A stretch of 41,243 nucleotides of DNA from Megasphaera sp. NM10 (GTDB lineage: Bacteria; Bacillota; Negativicutes; Veillonellales; Megasphaeraceae). Under the pieces are notes generated by a model, which was not told where the DNA came from, ran no database searches, and saw only the letters and a list, made by a program, of their open reading frames with translations. Positions 3 through 22,522 of this stretch are shown piece by piece. The position numbers and the translations under genes are program-made. The stretch is from NCBI RefSeq assembly GCF_000417505.1, contig NZ_APHY01000012.1, positions 1 through 41,243 on the forward strand. Reading direction: 5' to 3'. Position 1 is the stretch's first letter. Each line of letters begins with the position of its first letter.

Positions 3-602
3 GGTCGTAAACTTAAATCTATCAACCAGTATTGGAACAAACGCAAAACCAGACTCCAAAGCATTGCCGCCAAGCAGGGCCAGAAGACGACGAACCAGCT
101 CTGTCAGTTAGCGAAGAAACGCAATTTCCGGATGCAGGACATCCTTCGCAAGACAGCCCGCTATATCCTCGATTTTTGCATCCGTCATCAGATAGGGATC
201 CTTGTCTGCGGCTATAATCGCGATTTCAAACGAGGACTAAAGCTGGGCAAAGTGACGAATCAGCATTTCACTCAAATCAGCCTGAGCTATATGCGTAGTA
301 CCTTGAAACAGCTGTGTGAACGCTATGGGATAACCTATCTGGAACAGGAAGAATCCTATACCTCTCAGGCCAGCTGCCTGGATTTGGACGACATTCCCGT
401 ATACCAGCCGGATACCCCCTATACAGGAAGGTTCAGTGGACAACGAGTCCGGCGCGGCTTGTACCGCTTTGCCGATGGAAGGACGGCCAATGCCGATATC
501 AACGGAGCCGCCAATATACTCCGTAAAAGTAAGCAGAACTTCGATTTCGAGGGACTGTGTAAAGGGCTTTTGGACAGCCCTTTGAGAATAAGGCTATCCT
601 GA
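3..602 (+). CDS. tnpB: TnpB (IS200/IS605 OrfB) RNA-guided nuclease, C-terminal part, 5' end off window
   Basis: An open frame runs in from the left edge and stops with TGA at 602, giving about 199 residues. It is the C-terminal RuvC region of a TnpB/OrfB protein, a transposon-encoded RNA-guided DNA endonuclease. Visible motifs are GYNRDFKRGLKLGK, then EQEESYTSQAS, the stretch FSGQRVRRGLYR, and NADINGAANIL, which holds the RuvC-III aspartate. The two CxxC pairs of the usual zinc ribbon are absent, and the position where an E-D-L RuvC-II motif is normally found reads GYN. The glutamates of EQEESYTSQ may serve instead, as in the SYTS[KQ]AS subgroup. The first RuvC aspartate and the N-terminus lie outside the window, so intactness is unknown. 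No tnpA is visible. A hairpin typical of the element right end follows. Confidence 0.9.
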   Translation, partial: GRKLKSINQYWNKRKTRLQSIAAKQGQKTTNQLCQLAKKRNFRMQDILRKTARYILDFCIRHQIGILVCGYNRDFKRGLKLGKVTNQHFTQISLSYMRSTLKQLCERYGITYLEQEESYTSQASCLDLDDIPVYQPDTPYTGRFSGQRVRRGLYRFADGRTANADINGAANILRKSKQNFDFEGLCKGLLDSPLRIRLS

Positions 603-953: not shown

Positions 954-1352
954 ATGAAACATTTAGAAGTGGTAGCCGCGATTTTGGAGTATGATGGGAA
1001 AATTCTTTGTATGGAACGGGGCCAGGGAAAATTTGACTATGTCAGTTTCAAATACGAGTTTCCCGGTGGCAAGATTGAACCGGGCGAAGCCAAGCATACG
1101 GCCATTGAACGGGAACTGCGGGAAGAAATGGATGTCCATGTATCTGTCAAAGAATCAGATTTGTACATGACGGTCCATCATGATTATCCTGATTTTTCCA
1201 TGACCATGTACGCCTTTTACTGCCATTTGGACAAGCCCGATTTTGTCCGCAAAGAACACGTCGATGCGAAATGGATGGCTCCTGAAGACATGCCGACGCT
1301 GGACTGGGCACCGGCAGATGTGCCTATCATGAAAAAGCTTTCTGGAAAGTAG
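954..1352 (+). CDS. NUDIX hydrolase (MutT-like)
   Basis: A 132-residue NUDIX protein, expected to hydrolyse nucleoside diphosphates linked to another moiety, such as oxidised dNTPs. The NUDIX box is visible as G-K-I-E-P-G-E followed by RELREEMDV. It matches Gx5Ex7REuxEExGu except that Asp replaces the last Gly. The ATG at 954 is preferred over the in-frame ATG at 933 because AAGGGGAA (941–948) sits at Shine-Dalgarno distance from it. The stop lies 9 bases before the helicase start, so the two genes probably share one transcript. Codon use is more AT-rich than in the housekeeping block from 4.4 kb on. The substrate cannot be told from sequence. A role in sanitising nucleotides or in a defence unit with the helicase is inference. 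Confidence 0.85.
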   Translation: MKHLEVVAAILEYDGKILCMERGQGKFDYVSFKYEFPGGKIEPGEAKHTAIERELREEMDVHVSVKESDLYMTVHHDYPDFSMTMYAFYCHLDKPDFVRKEHVDAKWMAPEDMPTLDWAPADVPIMKKLSGK

Positions 1353-1361
1353 GCGATAGCC

Positions 1362-4238
1362 ATGGGGGAATATGGGGCTTTGGAGCAGTGTTTGCGCGAA
1401 GGTTTCATTGATTATACGGTGGAAGCGGACCAACGGTATGTTCCGAAAATTCTGACCAACAATAGGGATAAAAAGCGCAAGGTCCTCGATACGATTTTGT
1501 CACAGTTGTACGTTTGTGATTCCTTCTTGTTTTCCGTTGCCTTTTTGACGAAAAGCGGGATTGCCTGTCTGAAGGATGCGCTCATTCAGAACCGGACGGC
1601 GACGGGGAAGATTTTAGCCTCTCAGTATTTGAACTTTACGGAACCCGGTGCATTGCGGGAATTGTTGAAGTTTCCCAATGTCGAATTGCGCATGGTAACG
1701 GAAGAACGGGCTTTTCACGCCAAAGGCTATCTCTTTCATCGTTCCCAGGCAGGGCCGGAAAATTATACCATGGTCATTGGCAGCAGTAACATGACGGCCA
1801 ATGCCTTGACGCACAATCAGGAATGGAATGTGTTCTTTACATCGGCAGAAAACGGCTCGCTCATCAGGCAGACCAAGGAAGAATTTGATGCCTTGTGGGA
1901 TACGGCGGAAGTCGTCGATGAAGCGTGGATTCAGGCTTATGAGTCTGTGTACACGCACAATAAACCGAAACGGCAGTCCGTGTATGTTCCTTTTCATAAA
2001 ATCCAGCCGAACGCCATGCAAAAAGCGGCTTTAGCGGGGATTCAAAAGTTGCGCGACGATGGTCAGGACCGGGGGCTGCTCATTTCAGCGACTGGGACGG
2101 GGAAAACCTATTTGTCGGCCTTTGATGTCTTAAAAACGCATCCCCGGCGGTTTCTCTTTGTCGTCCATCGGGAGCTCATCGTCAAAAGTGCACGGGACAG
2201 TTACGTCCGGATTGGCATTAATCCAGCCGATACGGGGCTGCTGACAGGGCACGATAAAGAAATGGATAAGCCCTATATTTTTGCGACCATTCAGACCTTG
2301 GCCCAGGATGAAATACTCCATACCTTTGCGCCCGATGCTTTTGACTATATTGTCATCGACGAAGTGCATCATGGCGGAGCCGCGACGTACCAAAAGGTCA
2401 TTGGCTATTTTCGGCCCAAATTTCTGTTAGGTATGACGGCGACACCGGAACGGTCCGATGATTTCGATATTTATGCTTTGTTCCATCATCATATTGCTTA
2501 TGAAATCCGCTTGCACGACGCCTTGGAAGAAAATATGCTCGTTCCTTTTCACTACCACGGCATCAGCGAGATTACCGTCAATGGCAACGTGTTGGACGAT
2601 AAAAGCGATTTTGCTCTCTTGACTTGCGAAGAACGTATAAAACATATATTATATTATGCCGATTTGTATGGCAGTGATGCCGACCGCATCAAAGGCCTCG
2701 TCTTTTGCCGCAATGTAGAAGAAGCGCAGGCCTTGGCTGAAGCGTTTCGCCAGCATGGGAAACGGGCAATCGCCTTGACGGGCGCGTCGCGCGAAAGCGA
2801 ACGGAGTGAAGCGATTCGTCATTTAGAGGCGAAAGCTGCCGAAGACCCGCAGTATCTCGATTACATTTTCACTTGTGATATTTTCAATGAAGGCGTCGAC
2901 ATTCCCCAGGTCAATCAGGTCATCATGCTGCGACCGACAACGTCGGCTATCGTCTTTGTGCAGCAGTTAGGCCGGGGGCTTCGCAAATATCCGCATAAGC
3001 GCTATTTAGAAGTGCTCGATTTCATTGGCAACTATGAAAATAACTTTTTACTTCCCATCGCCCTGTTTGGCGACCGGACGTATGATAAGGATTTTGTCCG
3101 CCGCCTCATGCAGGTCAATTTTCTGCCGGGACCGACGTCGGTTCATTTTGACGATATCGCCAAAGAACGAATTTACGCGGCTATTGATGCCAAAAGTGCT
3201 TTGGCAGACCTGCGGGATTTGAAAGAATCATATCGTAATATGGCCTATCGCCTGGGCCGCCAGCCCATGATGATGGATTTTGTCCGCTTTGGCGACAAGG
3301 ATCCGGCGCTGTTCGTCGCTAAGAAAGAGTCTTTTTTTGAATTTGTTCAATACATGGAGCCTTATAACTCGACGCTGAACGCATCGCATCGGGCTGTGCT
3401 GAAGATGATGAGCCTGGAACTGGCCAATGGCAAACGGATAGAAGAATTGCTGGTCTTGCGCCATTTGCTGACAGAAGATTCCTGGTCTACGGCGGCCCTG
3501 GCTAAGGAAATGAACGAAACATACCATTTCCTGCCGTCTGCGGAAACGATGGAAAGCGTGGCCCGCCTGCTGGATTTGCAATTTTTTACTAAAACGGCCA
3601 GAAAAAAATACGGCGGACAGCCGCTCATTTCCTTTGAAAATCATGCTTATACAGCGACTCCTTATTGGAACGATTTGAAAGAAAATAAAGAATTTCAGTG
3701 CTATGTTCAAGATATCCTCGACTATGGGACCTATCGTTTTGAAAGCCTCTACGTCCACGACGAACCGGAAATCATTAAAGGCTTTGTCCGCTACGGCCGC
3801 TATTCCCGTAAAGACGTATCGCGTATTCTCAATTATGAGACGAATCGCGAAGGCACGCTCAATGGCTATCAGATTGTCGGGGCTACGTGTCCTATTTTCG
3901 TCACCTATGAGAAACGTGACGACATTTCGGCCAATACGAAGTACGAAGACCAGTTCGTCTCGCCACAGCAGTTCAGCTGGATGACGCGGGCTCGGATTCA
4001 CCTGACGTCGTCGCAGATTCCGGCGATTTGCAATGAGCACACGCGGAAACTGCTGTTTGTAAAAAAGAGCGATGCCGAAGGCTCCGACTTCTATTACATG
4101 GGAGATTTGACGGTATTAGGCGATCCTGTCGAAACGACGATTGCCGATGGCAAAGGGCAGCAGCTGCCTATCGTCAATTTCCAGTTCCTTTTGGACAAGC
4201 CTGTTGAGGATAAGCTCTATCGGTATCTGTGTGAGTGA
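1362..4238 (+). CDS. PLD-nuclease / SF2 DEAD-DEAH helicase / DUF3427 protein
   Basis: A 958-residue multidomain protein. The N-terminal third is a phospholipase-D-type nuclease domain with HAKGY (H119, K121) and GSSNMT at about 140–145. A superfamily 2 helicase core follows: Walker A SATGTGKT (242–249), Walker B DEVHH (from 333), motif III GMTATP, and motif VI QQLGRGLRK (from 534). The last 300 or so residues fit the DUF3427 region found behind such helicases. Only one HxK motif is evident, so a nuclease would probably act as a dimer. The protein likely translocates on nucleic acid and cleaves it. PLD–SF2 combinations are frequent among restriction-like and defence proteins, but no specific system is recognised. 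The start ATG follows GTAGGCGAT, a weak ribosome site 9 bases after the NUDIX stop. Composition is more AT-rich than the downstream block, in line with acquisition next to an IS element. Confidence 0.85.
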   Translation: MGEYGALEQCLREGFIDYTVEADQRYVPKILTNNRDKKRKVLDTILSQLYVCDSFLFSVAFLTKSGIACLKDALIQNRTATGKILASQYLNFTEPGALRELLKFPNVELRMVTEERAFHAKGYLFHRSQAGPENYTMVIGSSNMTANALTHNQEWNVFFTSAENGSLIRQTKEEFDALWDTAEVVDEAWIQAYESVYTHNKPKRQSVYVPFHKIQPNAMQKAALAGIQKLRDDGQDRGLLISATGTGKTYLSAFDVLKTHPRRFLFVVHRELIVKSARDSYVRIGINPADTGLLTGHDKEMDKPYIFATIQTLAQDEILHTFAPDAFDYIVIDEVHHGGAATYQKVIGYFRPKFLLGMTATPERSDDFDIYALFHHHIAYEIRLHDALEENMLVPFHYHGISEITVNGNVLDDKSDFALLTCEERIKHILYYADLYGSDADRIKGLVFCRNVEEAQALAEAFRQHGKRAIALTGASRESERSEAIRHLEAKAAEDPQYLDYIFTCDIFNEGVDIPQVNQVIMLRPTTSAIVFVQQLGRGLRKYPHKRYLEVLDFIGNYENNFLLPIALFGDRTYDKDFVRRLMQVNFLPGPTSVHFDDIAKERIYAAIDAKSALADLRDLKESYRNMAYRLGRQPMMMDFVRFGDKDPALFVAKKESFFEFVQYMEPYNSTLNASHRAVLKMMSLELANGKRIEELLVLRHLLTEDSWSTAALAKEMNETYHFLPSAETMESVARLLDLQFFTKTARKKYGGQPLISFENHAYTATPYWNDLKENKEFQCYVQDILDYGTYRFESLYVHDEPEIIKGFVRYGRYSRKDVSRILNYETNREGTLNGYQIVGATCPIFVTYEKRDDISANTKYEDQFVSPQQFSWMTRARIHLTSSQIPAICNEHTRKLLFVKKSDAEGSDFYYMGDLTVLGDPVETTIADGKGQQLPIVNFQFLLDKPVEDKLYRYLCE

Positions 4239-4246
4239 GTCATTAT

Positions 4247-4297
4247 TTAGTAAATCGTAAATTAGTAAATCGTAACTTACTAATTTATGATTTACTA
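4247..4297. repeat. AT-rich 21-bp inverted repeat with internal 14-bp direct repeat
   Basis: Arms at 4248–4268 and 4277–4297 are inverse complements with one mismatch (GTAA/ATAA in the middle), around an 8-base loop. The left half also contains TTAGTAAATCGTAA twice (4247–4260 and 4262–4275, period 15). It lies just after the helicase stop and has no T-tract, so it is not a standard terminator. It could be a protein-binding or recombination site, a MITE remnant, or an AT-rich bidirectional terminator. Confidence 0.7.
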
Positions 4298-19096: not shown

Positions 19097-19810
19097 ATGT
19101 ACGGATTGAGTGTCAGACAGTGGCGGCAGATCTTTGCTATTTTGTCCCGCTATGGCAACCGGATCGATTGGGTGAAACTCTTCGGGTCGCGGGCTCGTGG
19201 CGATTATAAGCCTGTTTCCGATGTGGATTTGGCCATTGCCAGTACGGAAAATCTGGTGACGCCGCTGCAGCTCGATTTCGACCAGAGCCAGCTGCCCTTT
19301 ACTTTTGATCTCATTGATTACCGGCGTCAGCCGAATCAGAAATTGAAAGATGCCATCGACAGGGAAGGGAAACTGCTCTGGGCTGTCGACGGCAAAGGAG
19401 AATGGATGATGACGAAAGAACAATTACGGCTGAAGTGGGAAGACTACCACAAAGCCCTGAACCGCCTGGAAATTGCCCTGACCAAGACTTTGGACGAAGA
19501 CGACCTCTATCTCGATGCAACCATCCAGCGTTTTGAATTTACCTTTGAACTGGCCTGGAAACTGATGAAGGCCGTCCTGGACTATGAAGGCATCGAAGCG
19601 ACCAGCCCACGCAGCAGTATCCGCGAAGCCTGGAAACAACATCTCATCGGCGATGCGGAAAAATGGCTGGACATGCAGGTCAAACGCAACCTTTCTTTTC
19701 ATACCTATAATGAAGAAACGGCACAGGACATCTACCGCCACATCAAAGAAGACTACATCGGCCTGCTGCAGGTGCTGGATCAGGAAGTACGTTCGAGACT
19801 TGATATTTGA
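19097..19810 (+). CDS. Fused MntA-like nucleotidyltransferase antitoxin and HepT-like HEPN toxin
   Basis: One 237-residue chain joins two proteins normally encoded by adjacent genes. Residues about 1–100 are a minimal nucleotidyltransferase (MNT): GSRARGDYKPVSDVD (30–44) matches the GSX10DXD signature exactly. Residues about 105–237 are a HEPN domain of the HI0074/HepT type, with helices EFTFELAWKLMKAVLDYEG and the motif RNLSFHTY (197–204), an exact RX4HXY. In characterised HepT/MntA pairs, HepT is an RNase using R and H, and MntA modifies the Tyr with AMP to neutralise it. ATG 19097 follows AAAGGAGG (19083–19090). At the junction an internal AAAGGAG and in-frame ATGs (19406, 19409) could allow a separate HEPN product. 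It stands alone after the mutM palindromes, and a strong terminator follows. Confidence 0.88.
   Translation: MYGLSVRQWRQIFAILSRYGNRIDWVKLFGSRARGDYKPVSDVDLAIASTENLVTPLQLDFDQSQLPFTFDLIDYRRQPNQKLKDAIDREGKLLWAVDGKGEWMMTKEQLRLKWEDYHKALNRLEIALTKTLDEDDLYLDATIQRFEFTFELAWKLMKAVLDYEGIEATSPRSSIREAWKQHLIGDAEKWLDMQVKRNLSFHTYNEETAQDIYRHIKEDYIGLLQVLDQEVRSRLDI
19394..19411 (+). promoter_or_regulatory. Internal Shine-Dalgarno and in-frame ATG at the MNT/HEPN junction
   Basis: AAAGGAG (19394–19400) lies 5 bases before ATG 19406 and 8 before ATG 19409, both in the reading frame. The second would start MTKEQLRLKWEDYHKAL, where a free HepT protein would begin. It may be a relic of two genes fused by loss of a stop, or an active internal start. 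Confidence 0.55.
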
Positions 19811-19825
19811 CCTTACTAACAACGT

Positions 19826-19866
19826 AAAAGGGCTTATTGCACGGAGAATCGTGCATAAGCCCTTTT
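19826..19866. terminator. Bidirectional intrinsic terminator
   Basis: AAAAGGGCTTATTGCACG (19826–19843) pairs with CGTGCATAAGCCCTTTT (19850–19866) around GAGAAT, with a single bulged T. T-tracts on both strands would end both the fused toxin-antitoxin gene and the converging acetyltransferase gene. Confidence 0.85.
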
Positions 19867-19911
19867 GCTGTATGCAAAAATATCATAGCTTTATGGTCAT
19901 ATTCTTTAAAT

Positions 19912-20727
19912 TTATGGTAAAAGACGATAATTATGGGGAACTGAGATGTGGAAAATGTCAGACAGGAGATGGGCAGCTTCTTCTTTTCCAGAAATGGGAA
20001 GACGCTTTTCTACTTTGCCATTTCGATACACTTTCATTTCATCTTTTACGATAGTCAAATCGGCATCCTGGGTAAACAGGCTGATTTTCATGTATTTATT
20101 GAACCGGGAATCGGGATGTTGGTCACAATAGAAAGAGGGCATGATAAAATCGTCATCGATCTGCGGTTCATCGGTAAAACCATAGATCGGTTTCCATGAT
20201 TTCCCCAGTTCTTTTTGCATGAGTACATGGCCGTAGAAAGAGTCTTCATCCATACAATAGGAAGAAATACCATCATTTTGTATTTCTCCGGTCTTGATGC
20301 GGATTGGTTGTCTGGGGGATTCACTATTGACGCCAACATCAGTGAGCCAGGGGATACTGTCTATGGTAACTATCAGGACCCGGTGACGCCGCATCTGGAC
20401 AATACCGGGCTCGTCCATAAAACGGCCTGCCCGCTGTTCAACGTGATAGCCAAGTGTCGTGAGCAGTAGAAGAAACAGCCCTTGCAGTTCAAAGCAATAT
20501 CCGCCCCGTCGATGAAGAATCATTTTTTTATAGAGGTCTTCTGAATCCATGGATGTTGAAATGCCATTCATAGGGTCCAGATTTTCATAAGGAATGGATA
20601 AAAGATGATGGATTTGGAGTTCCTTCAAGCCGTCTATATCGGTTACCTTCGGTGGAGATACCAGATGGATCCGTTGGAGATAGTTTGCGAGTTCTTGCGA
20701 GGATAATTTGTGATGAGTGACATCCAT
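19912..20727 (-). CDS. nat: Arylamine N-acetyltransferase
   Basis: A 271-residue cytoplasmic enzyme moving acetyl from acetyl-CoA to arylamines or hydrazines. The Cys-His-Asp triad is visible: C78 in RRGGYCFELQ, H115 in RRHRVLIV, D130 in WLTDVGV. IPYENLDP is the usual family motif before it. The start at 20727 is preferred to an ATG at 20754 because GGGAGGAA sits about 7 bases ahead of it. It has its own promoter and terminator and no operon partner. Codon use is more AT-rich than the housekeeping block, so horizontal acquisition is possible. The natural substrate is unknown. Confidence 0.93.
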   Translation of the reverse strand: MDVTHHKLSSQELANYLQRIHLVSPPKVTDIDGLKELQIHHLLSIPYENLDPMNGISTSMDSEDLYKKMILHRRGGYCFELQGLFLLLLTTLGYHVEQRAGRFMDEPGIVQMRRHRVLIVTIDSIPWLTDVGVNSESPRQPIRIKTGEIQNDGISSYCMDEDSFYGHVLMQKELGKSWKPIYGFTDEPQIDDDFIMPSFYCDQHPDSRFNKYMKISLFTQDADLTIVKDEMKVYRNGKVEKRLPISGKEEAAHLLSDIFHISVPHNYRLLP

Positions 20728-20805
20728 GACAGGTTCCTCCCTTTTTTGATTCATGGGATATGAATTTTATCCTGGATCTTCAAACATGACTTTTGTCTAA
20801 AAAAT

Positions 20806-20834
20806 AGTATACCATACTCTGGGAAATGTGCCAA
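20806..20834 (-). promoter_or_regulatory. nat promoter
   Basis: On the minus strand TTGGCA (20829–20834), a 17-base spacer, then TATACT (20806–20811). The transcript would start near 20799, about 70 bases before the start codon. Confidence 0.7.
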
Positions 20835-21071
20835 TGCAATAACAATCCATACAATGTCGCCAGGTTGCATTATGGTATTTGTAGCAAGATACAAAAGATA
20901 TGTAAAAAAAGTTTTGCCGAACTGGATTTTGATGCTGCAAAAAGAGATGTCGCTCCTTTTTTGGCAAACACATAGCTCTTTGAAGTACTGAGTTTTTTCA
21001 AGCGATTACAGAAAAGTTAAAGATAGATTCATCTGCTATCAAGTCAGAGTAAATTAAATAAATAACAAAAC
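20835..21071. other. AT-rich intergenic region, no gene recognised
   Basis: About 240 bases without a supported coding region. A weak plus-strand promoter-like pair (TTGCAT at 20865–20870, GATACA at 20888–20893) and a short AAAAAGAG…CTCCTTTTTT dyad (about 20939–20963) could frame a small RNA, but both signals are poor and this is only a possibility. Confidence 0.3.
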
Positions 21072-21113
21072 GACCCCCTAATCGTTAGAGTTTTGGTCTA
21101 ACAATTGGGGGTC
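21072..21113 (-). terminator. Terminator of the BCCT–DUF389 transcript
   Basis: GACCCCC…TTAGA (21072–21089) pairs with TCTAA…GGGGGTC (21097–21113). Read on the minus strand it is followed by GTTTTGTTATTT. It lies 35 bases past the DUF389 stop. Confidence 0.75.
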
Positions 21114-21148
21114 GGTATACTTTTCAGCTGCTTAAAGCAGTTTTGATT

Positions 21149-22522
21149 TTACCATTGAATCCCGTTGCCATAGTATTCGCTGGGAGCATTGCTGGTCTGG
21201 ACATTCAGAATGACAGGCATGTTTACCTGACCTTTGATCCAATCATGCAGACGCAGCGCGTCATCGGCACTAAGGGGAGTTCTGACGGTAACTTCGGCCA
21301 TGAAACGGTCGTAGCCAAATGTACCGTCTTTCGTATCGTTATCTCGATGCAAGGCTGTTAGCGTGCCACCCCGGACAGACTGGATTTCCGGGAATAATAA
21401 AGGAGCCTGGCTGTTTAGAATCTGGATGACCTGCTGGTCTGCTGCAGCACGTTCGTAAGCTGGGTAATATTTACTGGTCAGCATCTTGTACGAAGCTTCT
21501 TTTTCGGCTTTGCCTTGTTTTTCTATACGTGAATTGATTAATCGCTGCACTTCCTCAGTGTTCAGATTCCTGTTTCCCTGGATAATAGAAAGAGATATGC
21601 CTTGAAGACGTGGATAGTTATTTATGTTCGATTTAAGCTGGTCTATTTGTTCTTCCGTCAGGACAGCCCCGACAAGATCAATTGTCAAGGTCTTATCTTT
21701 TAGTGTGTAAGAAACGACACTAGTTTTTTCAAAATTCATGTTTGTTTCTATAAAAGATTTGACCTGGACTTCCTGGAGCGCATCTTTTACCGTTAGATGA
21801 GCCATATAGATGCTTGGAATCGTAATTAATAGGCCGAGGATAACTAAAATGAGACGCTGTTTGCGAAAATGAGCTTCAGCGACATTGCCGTGAGGCGGGA
21901 CTTTCAGAATCTTAAATACCAAGAACGAAGACAAGGCAATGAAAAAGGCATTGATGAAGAACAGGTACAAGGCACCCAGGAAAAACGTGTGGTTCCCGGA
22001 GGCCAGCCCATAGCCGGCCGTACAGAGGGGCGGCATCAGTGCCGTGGCGATGGCGACGCCGGGGATGACATTGCTCTTTTCTTTCCGCGTGTTCCCGACC
22101 GCACCGGCAATCCCGCCGCATAAGGCGACGAGGACATCCCAGATTGTCGGGGTAGTCCGGGCCAGGATTTCATCTGTCGGCGAGGTAAACGGCGAAAGGA
22201 GAAAATAAATCGAAGCTGTCAGCACGGCCAGGCCGACCTGGAAGGATAATTTGATGAGGGATTTGCGGATAAAAGGGACGTCATATGCGGCCATTCCGTA
22301 GCCCGTCGCTACGATACCGCCCATCAGCGGGGAAATGAGCATGGCGCCGATGATGACGGCGACGCTGTTCAAGTTCAGGCCGATGCAGGCGATCATGATG
22401 GCCATGACTAAGACGATCAAGTTCGTGCCTTCGATGGTGGCGTCGGATAAGATGCGCTGATTGATGACTTCCATCGGGGCCGAGTCGCCTTTCAAATCGA
22501 TTAAGTTATTCCAGCGGTTCAT
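21149..22522 (-). CDS. DUF389 family membrane protein
   Basis: 457 residues. The N-terminal half has about six hydrophobic helices (NLIVLVMAIMIACIGL, VAVIIGAMLISPLMGGIVA, PGVAIATALMPPLCTAGYGLA), the typical signature of the DUF389/TIGR00341 family. The C-terminal half is soluble and rich in charged residues, with an OB/BON-like look (LTIDLVGAVLTEEQIDQLKSNI). The function is unknown. ATG 22522 overlaps the stop of the BCCT gene (ATGA), with AAGGAGG ahead, so it is translationally coupled to the transporter. A joint role in osmotic or membrane stress is inference. Confidence 0.88.
   Translation of the reverse strand: MNRWNNLIDLKGDSAPMEVINQRILSDATIEGTNLIVLVMAIMIACIGLNLNSVAVIIGAMLISPLMGGIVATGYGMAAYDVPFIRKSLIKLSFQVGLAVLTASIYFLLSPFTSPTDEILARTTPTIWDVLVALCGGIAGAVGNTRKEKSNVIPGVAIATALMPPLCTAGYGLASGNHTFFLGALYLFFINAFFIALSSFLVFKILKVPPHGNVAEAHFRKQRLILVILGLLITIPSIYMAHLTVKDALQEVQVKSFIETNMNFEKTSVVSYTLKDKTLTIDLVGAVLTEEQIDQLKSNINNYPRLQGISLSIIQGNRNLNTEEVQRLINSRIEKQGKAEKEASYKMLTSKYYPAYERAAADQQVIQILNSQAPLLFPEIQSVRGGTLTALHRDNDTKDGTFGYDRFMAEVTVRTPLSADDALRLHDWIKGQVNMPVILNVQTSNAPSEYYGNGIQW

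What the first reader, a model, noticed from the sequence alone, without database searches (positions are those of the whole stretch)
954..4238. NUDIX hydrolase plus PLD-nuclease/SF2 helicase/DUF3427: candidate defence module
Two tightly spaced genes pair a nucleotide hydrolase with a large helicase carrying an N-terminal PLD nuclease. The unit is more AT-rich than the adjoining core genes and lies between an IS200/IS605 end and an odd AT-rich inverted repeat, like a small inserted island. Nuclease–helicase proteins of this architecture resemble antiphage effectors, and a NUDIX partner could process a nucleotide signal or modified nucleotides. No named system matched.
Basis: partly seen in the sequence, partly recalled or inferred. 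Interest (0 to 1): 0.6.

Follow-up and report, generated by a model that had tools for sequence, protein, structure and literature searches.

The report
Restriction enzyme with nucleotide-cleaning partner
A bacterial enzyme that shreds DNA carrying methylated or hydroxymethylated cytosine is encoded beside a small enzyme whose closest tested relative destroys exactly those modified building blocks, which suggests that the cell keeps the mark it attacks out of its own DNA.

Summary
In detail: a NUDIX hydrolase (954-1352) and a PLD-nuclease/SF2-helicase/DUF3427 protein (1362-4238) lie 9 bp apart. The large protein is a SauUSI-family Type IV (modified-cytosine-dependent) restriction enzyme, so a named system does match.

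The new part is the partner. In 129 SauUSI-clade genes the NUDIX lies within 500 bp in 112, in several gene orders. In S. aureus it lies 1 bp before SauUSI, and that NUDIX is PDB 5X1X. The closest assayed relative, B. fragilis 3GWY, hydrolyses 5-methyl-dCTP and 5-hydroxymethyl-dCTP with kcat/Km above 4x10^6 (PMC5158307), the triphosphates of the bases SauUSI attacks.

Enzymes with Asp/Glu at the predicted cytosine-reading residue (D858) nearly always have the NUDIX beside them (111 of 118); those with Asn mostly lack it (10 of 11). Independent changes are too few for formal significance. The same NUDIX subfamily also touches SRA or SRA-HNH genes (5 of 39 loci).

Best reading: a two-gene Type IV system whose NUDIX keeps 5-methyl/hydroxymethyl-dCTP out of host DNA, so the nuclease does not attack self. 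Linkage is shown; activity here and the protective role are inferred.

The parts
954..1352 (+). NUDIX hydrolase, 132 aa, PDC-S07 / NudG-like; proposed 5-methyl- and 5-hydroxymethyl-(d)CTP pyrophosphohydrolase
   Evidence: PADLOC PDC-S07 E 2e-42; PDB 3gwy E 1.9e-42; Nudix-box residues and the PAD Asp (residue 122) invariant in 122 linked NUDIX
1362..4238 (+). [quoted passage not shown]
   Evidence: PDB 7clg (SauUSI) E 2.1e-211 over residues 8-957; PADLOC mREase_IV E 3.8e-216
1362..1934 (+). PLD nuclease domain; H119 and K121 of the HxK motif (1716-1724) kept, the place of SauUSI motif residue E126 is His
   Evidence: alignment with 7clg; column read-out; domain limit taken from SauUSI residues 1-191
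1998..2984 (+). SF2 ATPase motor (ResIII + Helicase_C)
   Evidence: Pfam
3405..4229 (+). DUF3427 = coupler plus SRA-fold target-recognition domain; Y836, F846, V847, D863, W873 at the places of SauUSI Y831, F841, I842, D858, W868; SauUSI M829 is Asn here
   Evidence: Pfam, alignments, pocket roles from PMC7913695
4248..4297 (.). AT-rich hairpin with 21-nt arms just after the restriction gene; terminator-like position, role unknown
132..602 (+). TnpB C-terminal fragment of an IS200/IS605 element, cut by the contig start; not part of the system

Best explanation
The two genes are one Type IV restriction system of the SauUSI family with a dedicated NUDIX partner. The large protein reads 5-methylcytosine and 5-hydroxymethylcytosine through its SRA-fold domain, runs along the DNA with its SF2 motor and cuts with its dimeric PLD nuclease. 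The NUDIX cleaves 5-methyl-dCTP and 5-hydroxymethyl-dCTP to the monophosphate plus pyrophosphate. Modified nucleotides released from shredded foreign DNA, from host DNA turnover or made by a phage are thereby not built into the host chromosome, where they would become targets. It is self-protection at the level of the nucleotide pool. Shown: both genes, their families, the recurrent linkage and the correlation with the predicted cytosine-reading residue. From published work on relatives: SauUSI specificity and mechanism, and the 3GWY substrates. Inferred: the substrate of this NUDIX, and that protection of self is why the genes are kept together.
For: 1) Helicase: full-length match to SauUSI (7clg), HxK pair and 5mC-pocket residues kept. 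SauUSI cuts m5C and hm5C DNA but not glucosylated-hm5C or m4C DNA (PMC3874153, passages; PMC7913695, section). 2) NUDIX: best solved relative 3GWY (E 1.9e-42; 52% identity). 3GWY kcat/Km: 5-Me-CTP 6.7e6, 5-Me-dCTP 4.8e6, 5-hydroxymethyl-dCTP 4.4e6, 5-OH-dCTP 8.5e4 M-1 s-1, mainly alpha-beta cleavage, much lower on canonical NTPs (PMC5158307, passages). In a NUDIX tree 3GWY falls in an 11-row set with 9 SauUSI-linked and 1 group-2-linked NUDIX (SH-aLRT 98). 3) Linkage: NUDIX within 500 bp in 112 of 129 SauUSI-clade helicases, median gap 17 bp. Arrangements: upstream same strand 38, downstream same strand 29, downstream convergent 27, overlapping the stop-to-stop frame 18. In 60 relatives, strong PDC-S07 NUDIX (E<=5.3e-42) in 19 of 19 genomes with the full-length enzyme and 2 of 41 others, both of which carry a related PLD-helicase (Fisher p 1e-13, not corrected for kinship). 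4) Residue 858 (predicted base-specific contact): D 103 linked/7 not, E 8/0, N 1/10. The seven unlinked D-type have the NUDIX 0.9-2.8 kb away (3) or a strong PDC-S07 NUDIX elsewhere in the genome (4). Of the ten NUDIX-less N-type enzymes nine lie in genomes that were searched, and 7 of these 9 genomes have no PDC-S07 NUDIX at E<=1e-20. 5) The same NUDIX subfamily touches another kind of modified-DNA nuclease gene, SRA or SRA-HNH, in 5 of 39 loci without DUF3427 in the flanks and is fused to Vsr in Collinsella.
Against: No activity of this NUDIX was measured. PDC-S07 NUDIX is common without SauUSI (84 of 269 genomes of the phylum at E<=1e-35), so it also has other roles; the other 34 of the 39 DUF3427-free loci have no such SRA gene. 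A second DUF3427 group has Asp at this place in 31 of 31 loci but an adjacent NUDIX in only 8, and 16 of its 28 genomes have a strong PDC-S07 NUDIX anywhere. The D/N correlation rests on about 4 changes on the tree; independent pairs 2 for, 0 against, 1 no difference, p 0.5. One N-type enzyme (L281) has the NUDIX. An E-type fragment (L300, 207 aa, left out of the count) has none, nor has its genome. SauUSI alone is active in E. coli, so the NUDIX is not needed for cutting, and E. coli has its own NudG. Cytosine-5 methyltransferases are not depleted in carriers (12 of 19 against 28 of 41). Whether SauUSI would cut sparsely, randomly modified host DNA is untested.
Confidence: 0.55

Rival explanations
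1. The NUDIX is an antiphage effector in its own right: it drains the hydroxymethyl-dCTP that T-even-like phages need, so a phage is either cut by the restriction enzyme (modified) or short of nucleotides and open to ordinary restriction (unmodified).
For: 3GWY uses 5-hydroxymethyl-dCTP at 4.4e6 M-1 s-1; hm5C enters phage DNA through an hmdCTP pool (PMC3874153, passage); PADLOC, a library of known and candidate defence proteins, has a model for this NUDIX.
Against: It would remove the very mark the neighbouring enzyme needs. SauUSI also acts on 5-methylcytosine, which in most foreign DNA is added after synthesis (established knowledge) and so escapes a dNTP hydrolase. Not directly tested.
Confidence: 0.17
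2. The NUDIX is a general mutation-avoidance or pyrimidine-pool enzyme that travels with the restriction gene without a functional tie.
For: PDC-S07 NUDIX occurs in many genomes without DUF3427, and most of the neighbours looked at there are not defence genes; E. coli NudG is linked to mutation avoidance (PMC5158307, passage).
Against: Linkage kept in several gene orders and by NUDIX from several parts of the NUDIX tree; 19 of 19 against 2 of 41 co-occurrence; absence with most N-type enzymes.
Confidence: 0.18
3. The NUDIX makes or destroys a signal or acts on RNA (it may also take 5-methyl-CTP), regulating the nuclease or the cell rather than guarding DNA.
For: 5-Me-CTP is the best 3GWY substrate by a small margin; NUDIX domains occur in NAD/ADP-ribose conflict systems (PMC7159879, passage).
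Against: No signal-making gene was recognised among the neighbours looked at in the window or in L072; the closest relative acts on C5-substituted cytidine triphosphates.
Confidence: 0.08

Closest known systems
SauUSI (S. aureus Type IV restriction enzyme, PDB 7CLG)
   Same: Same domain order over the full length (residues 8-957 against 9-952), HxK pair, SF2 motor, SRA pocket. In S. aureus record NZ_CP077890 a SauUSI gene (broken frame; matches the 7clg chain by eye) also follows a NUDIX gene, by 1 bp.
   Different: 43% identical over residues 9-651 and 29% over 726-957 (pieces compared apart); motif residue E126 is His and M829 is Asn here; described as a single-protein system in the texts I saw.
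Bacteroides fragilis Q5LBB1 / PDB 3GWY, 5-methyl- and 5-hydroxymethyl-(d)CTP pyrophosphatase
   Same: 52% identical to the window NUDIX, same supported tree set, same Nudix box and PAD Asp.
   Different: Its own gene neighbourhood could not be read here; activity of the window protein not measured.
E. coli NudG (Orf135, PDB 2RRK)
   Same: NudG-type NUDIX; 5-methyl-dCTP is one of the two likely physiological substrates listed for it, with 2-OH-dATP.
   Different: The window NUDIX is below the NudG model cut-off (82.8 against 156 bits); NudG falls with NUDIX not linked to SauUSI in the tree.
S. aureus 'Mutator mutT protein' PDB 5X1X
   Same: Identical over 130 of 130 residues to the NUDIX encoded before SauUSI in the S. 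aureus record.
   Different: 37% identical to the window NUDIX. The paper search for it was swamped by unrelated hits, so whether a study exists is open.
SRA-HNH Type IV enzymes (McrA / TagI-like)
   Same: SRA or SRA-HNH genes have the PDC-S07 NUDIX touching them in 5 of 39 DUF3427-free loci.
   Different: Unrelated nuclease and no helicase motor; Pfam SRA scores are below the curated cut-off.

Membership tests
SauUSI-family Type IV restriction enzyme | Single chain PLD nuclease - SF2 ATPase - coupler - SRA domain, full-length similarity | tested here: met
   7clg E 2.1e-211 over residues 8-957; mREase_IV E 3.8e-216; Pfam domains
SauUSI-family Type IV restriction enzyme | PLD motif H(x)K(x)4E | tested here: inconclusive
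   H119 and K121 present; the last motif residue is His instead of Glu in the window and in the other 6 genus loci
SauUSI-family Type IV restriction enzyme | 5mC pocket residues Y831, F841, I842, D858, W868 | tested here: met
   Y, F, V, D, W in the window protein; the M829 wedge is Asn
SauUSI-family Type IV restriction enzyme | ATP-dependent cleavage of m5C/hm5C DNA | not testable with these tools
   needs purified protein
5-substituted (d)CTP NUDIX (3GWY / NudG type) | Complete Nudix-box catalytic residues | tested here: met
   G39, E45, R53, E54, E57, E58 kept, 100% in 122 linked NUDIX
5-substituted (d)CTP NUDIX (3GWY / NudG type) | Asp of the PAD motif (its base-reading role is recalled, not from a call) | tested here: met
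   D122 present; 100% in linked and other PDC-S07 rows, 7% in 15 weak hits
5-substituted (d)CTP NUDIX (3GWY / NudG type) | NCBIfam NudG equivalog cut-off (PRK10546, 156 bits) | tested here: not met
   82.8 bits; so it is not filed as NudG itself
5-substituted (d)CTP NUDIX (3GWY / NudG type) | Hydrolysis of 5-methyl- and 5-hydroxymethyl-dCTP | not testable with these tools
   measured only for 3GWY
RadD / DNA-repair helicase | NCBIfam RadD cut-off 720 bits | tested here: not met
   74.9 bits
Type I restriction R subunit | NCBIfam EcoAI-type cut-off 550 bits | tested here: not met
   114.4 bits; neighbours are a NUDIX and a PIN/TRAM gene

The most novel reading that the evidence does not exclude
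Modification-dependent restriction has a general self-immunity principle that acts on nucleotides: the host destroys the modified dNTP so its own DNA never carries the mark. PDC-S07 NUDIX would be the pool gatekeeper of SauUSI-type systems and of some SRA-HNH systems, the counterpart of the methyltransferase in ordinary restriction-modification, and would be dispensable only when the reader domain no longer reads cytosine (D858 to N).
Probability: 0.45. Interest if true: 0.82.

Novelty: new variant of a known kind. Interest (0 to 1): 0.62.

Why it matters
SauUSI is described as a single-protein barrier to gene transfer (PMC7913695, abstract and two sections; PMC3874153, passages). If its conserved neighbour is a 5-methyl/5-hydroxymethyl-dCTP hydrolase, the system has two components and a way of telling self from non-self at the nucleotide level that I found proposed nowhere in what I could search. 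It gives a likely function to a structure in the PDB (5X1X), a physiological reason for the odd substrate preference of 3GWY, and a direct test of how cells that restrict modified cytosine survive salvage of modified nucleotides. It also predicts that Asn-type enzymes read something other than cytosine.

Tried and rejected
Rejected: repair helicase (RadD) or Type I R subunit (far below cut-offs). Rejected: IS605/hairpin-bounded island. Rejected: exclusive pairing of PDC-S07 NUDIX with SauUSI (84 of 269 genomes of the phylum have it). Tested without support: depletion of cytosine-5 methyltransferases in carriers (12 of 19 against 28 of 41, Fisher p 0.77). Tested, too little power: correlated change of residue 858 and the NUDIX on the tree (the raw Fisher p of 8e-10 ignores kinship). 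The group-2 DUF3427 enzymes were first meant as an unlinked control and are not one: 8 of 31 have an adjacent NUDIX and 16 of 28 genomes a strong PDC-S07 NUDIX.

Could not check: the neighbourhood of 3GWY in B. fragilis (no genome handle; the plasmid search gave six records, of which only Hymenobacter canadensis is Bacteroidota); the empty site in genus members without the pair; the founding SauUSI paper (Xu 2011; not held), so whether it mentions the NUDIX is unknown to me. The adjacency itself is in print for Streptococcus (PMC7641849, legend of Fig. 9, passage). Searches that could have shown a stated link between SauUSI or Type IV restriction and NUDIX/MutT/5-methyl-dCTP. I saw none in the listings and in the passages I opened; several listings were cut (20 of 98 papers, 12 of 62, 10 of 354), and the library holds open-licence PMC papers only. 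One search was swamped by papers on 'nudge' and by papers on mutton.

Rows dropped before counts: in the 129-row count, duplicates L121, L122, L315 and eight ORFs under 850 aa (L112, L217, L231, L261, L262, L293, L300, L306; seven have the NUDIX within 2.5 kb, L300 none); the 31 group-2 loci were counted apart. In one search, nine loci gave no usable ORF and were left out of that read-out; they were scored. Neighbour ORFs of 26 NUDIX loci: 29 of 49 were sent to Pfam, picked by eye; the rest were judged from the first 60 residues only or not at all. SRA was then searched in all 39 DUF3427-free loci with a model whose four seeds come from that set; the fifth locus, L365, was found by it. The 39 include L343 and L344 from two group-2 genomes. 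Of six plasmid records with at least 80% of the helicase covered, four have the NUDIX beside it; the Fusobacterium record has none within 3 kb, and the Rhodobacter record is not among the 40 NUDIX rows shown of 42. Gene frames are stop to stop, so 'overlapping' may mean only that the frames overlap. The NUDIX tree has few columns for its rows and a long-branch warning; both trees used the quick method.
Full report
What is there. The window carries, on the + strand, a 132-aa NUDIX hydrolase (954-1352) and, 9 bp later, a 958-aa protein (1362-4238) with PLD nuclease, SF2 helicase and DUF3427 regions. The unit is AT-richer than the genes after it. A TnpB C-terminal piece lies upstream at the contig start and an AT-rich hairpin follows the second gene. 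Neither is a conserved border. In three close relatives (G006, G009, G013) the downstream order is kept while TnpB is not found next to the pair, and the hairpin is found in one of them in altered form. G013 shares its contig with Megasphaera massiliensis (Bacillota, Negativicutes). The pair is variable in the genus: full-length helicase in 7 of 15 genomes. In G007, G008 and G001 the downstream PIN/TRAM and ispDF genes are not found within the fetched flanks of the pair.

The large protein. It matches the SauUSI crystal structure (7clg) over residues 8-957 (E 2.1e-211) and the PADLOC Type IV model over nearly its whole length. H119 and K121 of the nuclease motif are kept; the Glu of SauUSI's motif is His in all seven genus loci. 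[quoted passage not shown] The window has Y, F, V, W and D at these places. SauUSI acts on m5C and hm5C but not on glucosylated hm5C or m4C, and one polypeptide suffices (PMC3874153, passages).

The NUDIX. Its best PADLOC match is PDC-S07. Its best solved relative is B. fragilis 3GWY (E 1.9e-42; 52% identity). 3GWY (Q5LBB1) was screened against 74 compounds. Its best substrates are 5-Me-CTP, 5-Me-dCTP and 5-hydroxymethyl-dCTP at 4-7 x10^6 M-1 s-1; [quoted passage not shown] In a tree of 187 NUDIX (quick method, few columns, long-branch warning) 3GWY lies in an 11-row set holding 9 SauUSI-linked NUDIX and 1 linked to a group-2 helicase (98). Catalytic residues and the Asp of the PAD motif are invariant in 122 linked NUDIX; the Asp is rare (7%) in 15 weak hits from relatives.

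Linkage. first showed the NUDIX adjacent in all 19 full-length loci of 60 relatives and in L041; it lies upstream in the genus and downstream elsewhere. A phylum sample with PADLOC's model (299 genomes, 13 full-length places including the window's) had it near 11 of 13. A DUF3427 search of 398 genomes of the phylum gave 46 places. Without the window's own, 16 belong to the SauUSI clade, and 14 of these have the NUDIX in the fetched flanks. Searches of 380 genomes of the window's class and 398 of the class of G252 gave 39 and 89 places; 101 new regions were read. After dropping duplicates and short ORFs, 129 SauUSI-clade helicases remain. In 112 the NUDIX is within 500 bp, in 111 within 130 bp, with 38 upstream same strand, 29 downstream same strand, 27 downstream convergent and 18 with overlapping frames. 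Many of these are congeners, so the number of independent cases is smaller; the varied arrangements are the stronger point. Plasmid records add Hymenobacter canadensis and three lactobacilli, Lactiplantibacillus plantarum, Latilactobacillus curvatus and Limosilactobacillus fermentum (positions); a Fusobacterium record lacks it. In the S. aureus record the NUDIX gene ends 1 bp before the SauUSI start and its protein is identical to PDB 5X1X over 130 residues.

Dedicated partner. In the 60 relatives the PDC-S07 scores are bimodal: 21 genomes at E<=5.3e-42 and every other listed match at E>=6e-20. All 19 genomes with the full-length enzyme are among the 21. The other two, G025 and G028, carry a related PLD-helicase with the NUDIX 2.5 kb or 12 bp downstream. 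Across the phylum the subfamily is not exclusive: 84 of 269 genomes have it.

Does the partner follow the mark? At the residue matching D858, 110 enzymes have Asp, 8 Glu and 11 Asn. The NUDIX is within 500 bp of 103, 8 and 1 of these. The seven unlinked Asp cases resolve as three with the NUDIX 0.9-2.8 kb away (L232, L245, L292) and four with a strong PDC-S07 NUDIX elsewhere in the genome (G908, G918, G929, G867). So all 118 Asp/Glu enzymes in the count have a PDC-S07 NUDIX nearby or in the genome; a Glu-type fragment left out of the count (L300) has none. Of the ten NUDIX-less Asn enzymes, nine lie in genomes that were searched. Seven of these have no PDC-S07 at E<=1e-20; two (G306, G587) have only a distant NUDIX in a longer frame, which in G306 is a NUDIX fused to a 2-thiouracil-desulfurase domain (G587 not read). 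The tenth is the Fusobacterium record L079. One Asn enzyme, L281, has the NUDIX, while four loci of its genus (L234, L238, L240, L241) have Asp. The tree needs about four changes between Asp/Glu and Asn. Independent pairs run 2 for, 0 against and 1 without difference, which cannot reach significance. The reading that Asn would prefer a 4-keto base is inference.

Beyond SauUSI. Of 39 PDC-S07 loci without a DUF3427 gene in the flanks, five overlap or touch an SRA or SRA-HNH gene (L329, L331, L342, L346, L365). Pfam's SRA scores are below the curated cut-off (four of the five matched). PADLOC calls two of them mREase_IV (L329, L346), and L346 matches McrA-type enzymes and, weakly, TagI in the PDB. 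By comparison 1 of 101 SauUSI-clade loci has such a gene. L331 has a GmrSD-type gene on the other side, and Collinsella fuses the NUDIX to Vsr. The other 34 loci lack an SRA neighbour, and the second DUF3427 group has an adjacent NUDIX in only 8 of 31 loci although all 31 have the Asp. These limit the claim.

How it most likely works. The nuclease finds modified cytosine, translocates and shreds. The NUDIX removes 5-methyl- and 5-hydroxymethyl-dCTP, so fragments of shredded DNA, host turnover or phage enzymes do not seed the host genome with targets. Direct antiphage depletion of hydroxymethyl-dCTP is the main mechanistic rival. SauUSI working alone in E. coli fits an accessory, protective role but is also what an unrelated neighbour would give.

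Novelty. The restriction enzyme is known. The adjacency has been drawn for Streptococcus ('homologs of MutT pyrophosphohydrolase', PMC7641849 figure legend, passage), and PADLOC holds a model of the NUDIX. I saw no paper that joins the NUDIX substrate to the restriction target, within an open-licence library, in partly cut listings, and without the founding SauUSI paper. I file it as a new variant of a known kind.

Noticed in passing
L073:3322-13888 (S. aureus NZ_CP077890): The record carries two copies, in opposite orientation, of a phosphosugar mutase - NUDIX - SauUSI segment with broken SauUSI frames; the NUDIX is identical to PDB 5X1X.
   Followed up: partly
L076:6001-6990: Collinsella NUDIX fused to a Vsr mismatch endonuclease, another protein tied to 5-methylcytosine.
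   Followed up: partly
L329, L331, L342, L346, L365: PDC-S07 NUDIX overlapping or touching SRA or SRA-HNH genes, a possible second two-gene Type IV layout.
   Followed up: partly
L079, L123, L126, L222-L226, L271, L272: SauUSI-clade enzymes with Asn in place of D858 and no NUDIX in the flanks; they may read a base other than modified cytosine.
   Followed up: partly
L273:9575-10573: A SauUSI-clade locus with the NUDIX that also has an SRA-HNH-like gene nearby.
   Followed up: no
L171:1072-1875: NUDIX fused to a 2-thiouracil desulfurase domain (PF04463) in a genome with an Asn-type enzyme.
   Followed up: no
L324:905-1432: Weak EVE-like (modified-base reader) ORF beside a PDC-S07 NUDIX, E 0.0032, below the curated cut-off.
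   Followed up: no
window 4248-4297: AT-rich hairpin with 21-nt arms after the restriction gene; present in altered form in G006, replaced by other sequence in G009 and G013.
   Followed up: partly
window 19500-22500: A second AT-rich stretch (42-49% GC in 1-kb steps) with an arylamine N-acetyltransferase-like ORF (19912-20754, -) and a membrane-protein ORF (21149-22522, -); names are from reading the translations, no family search.
   Followed up: no
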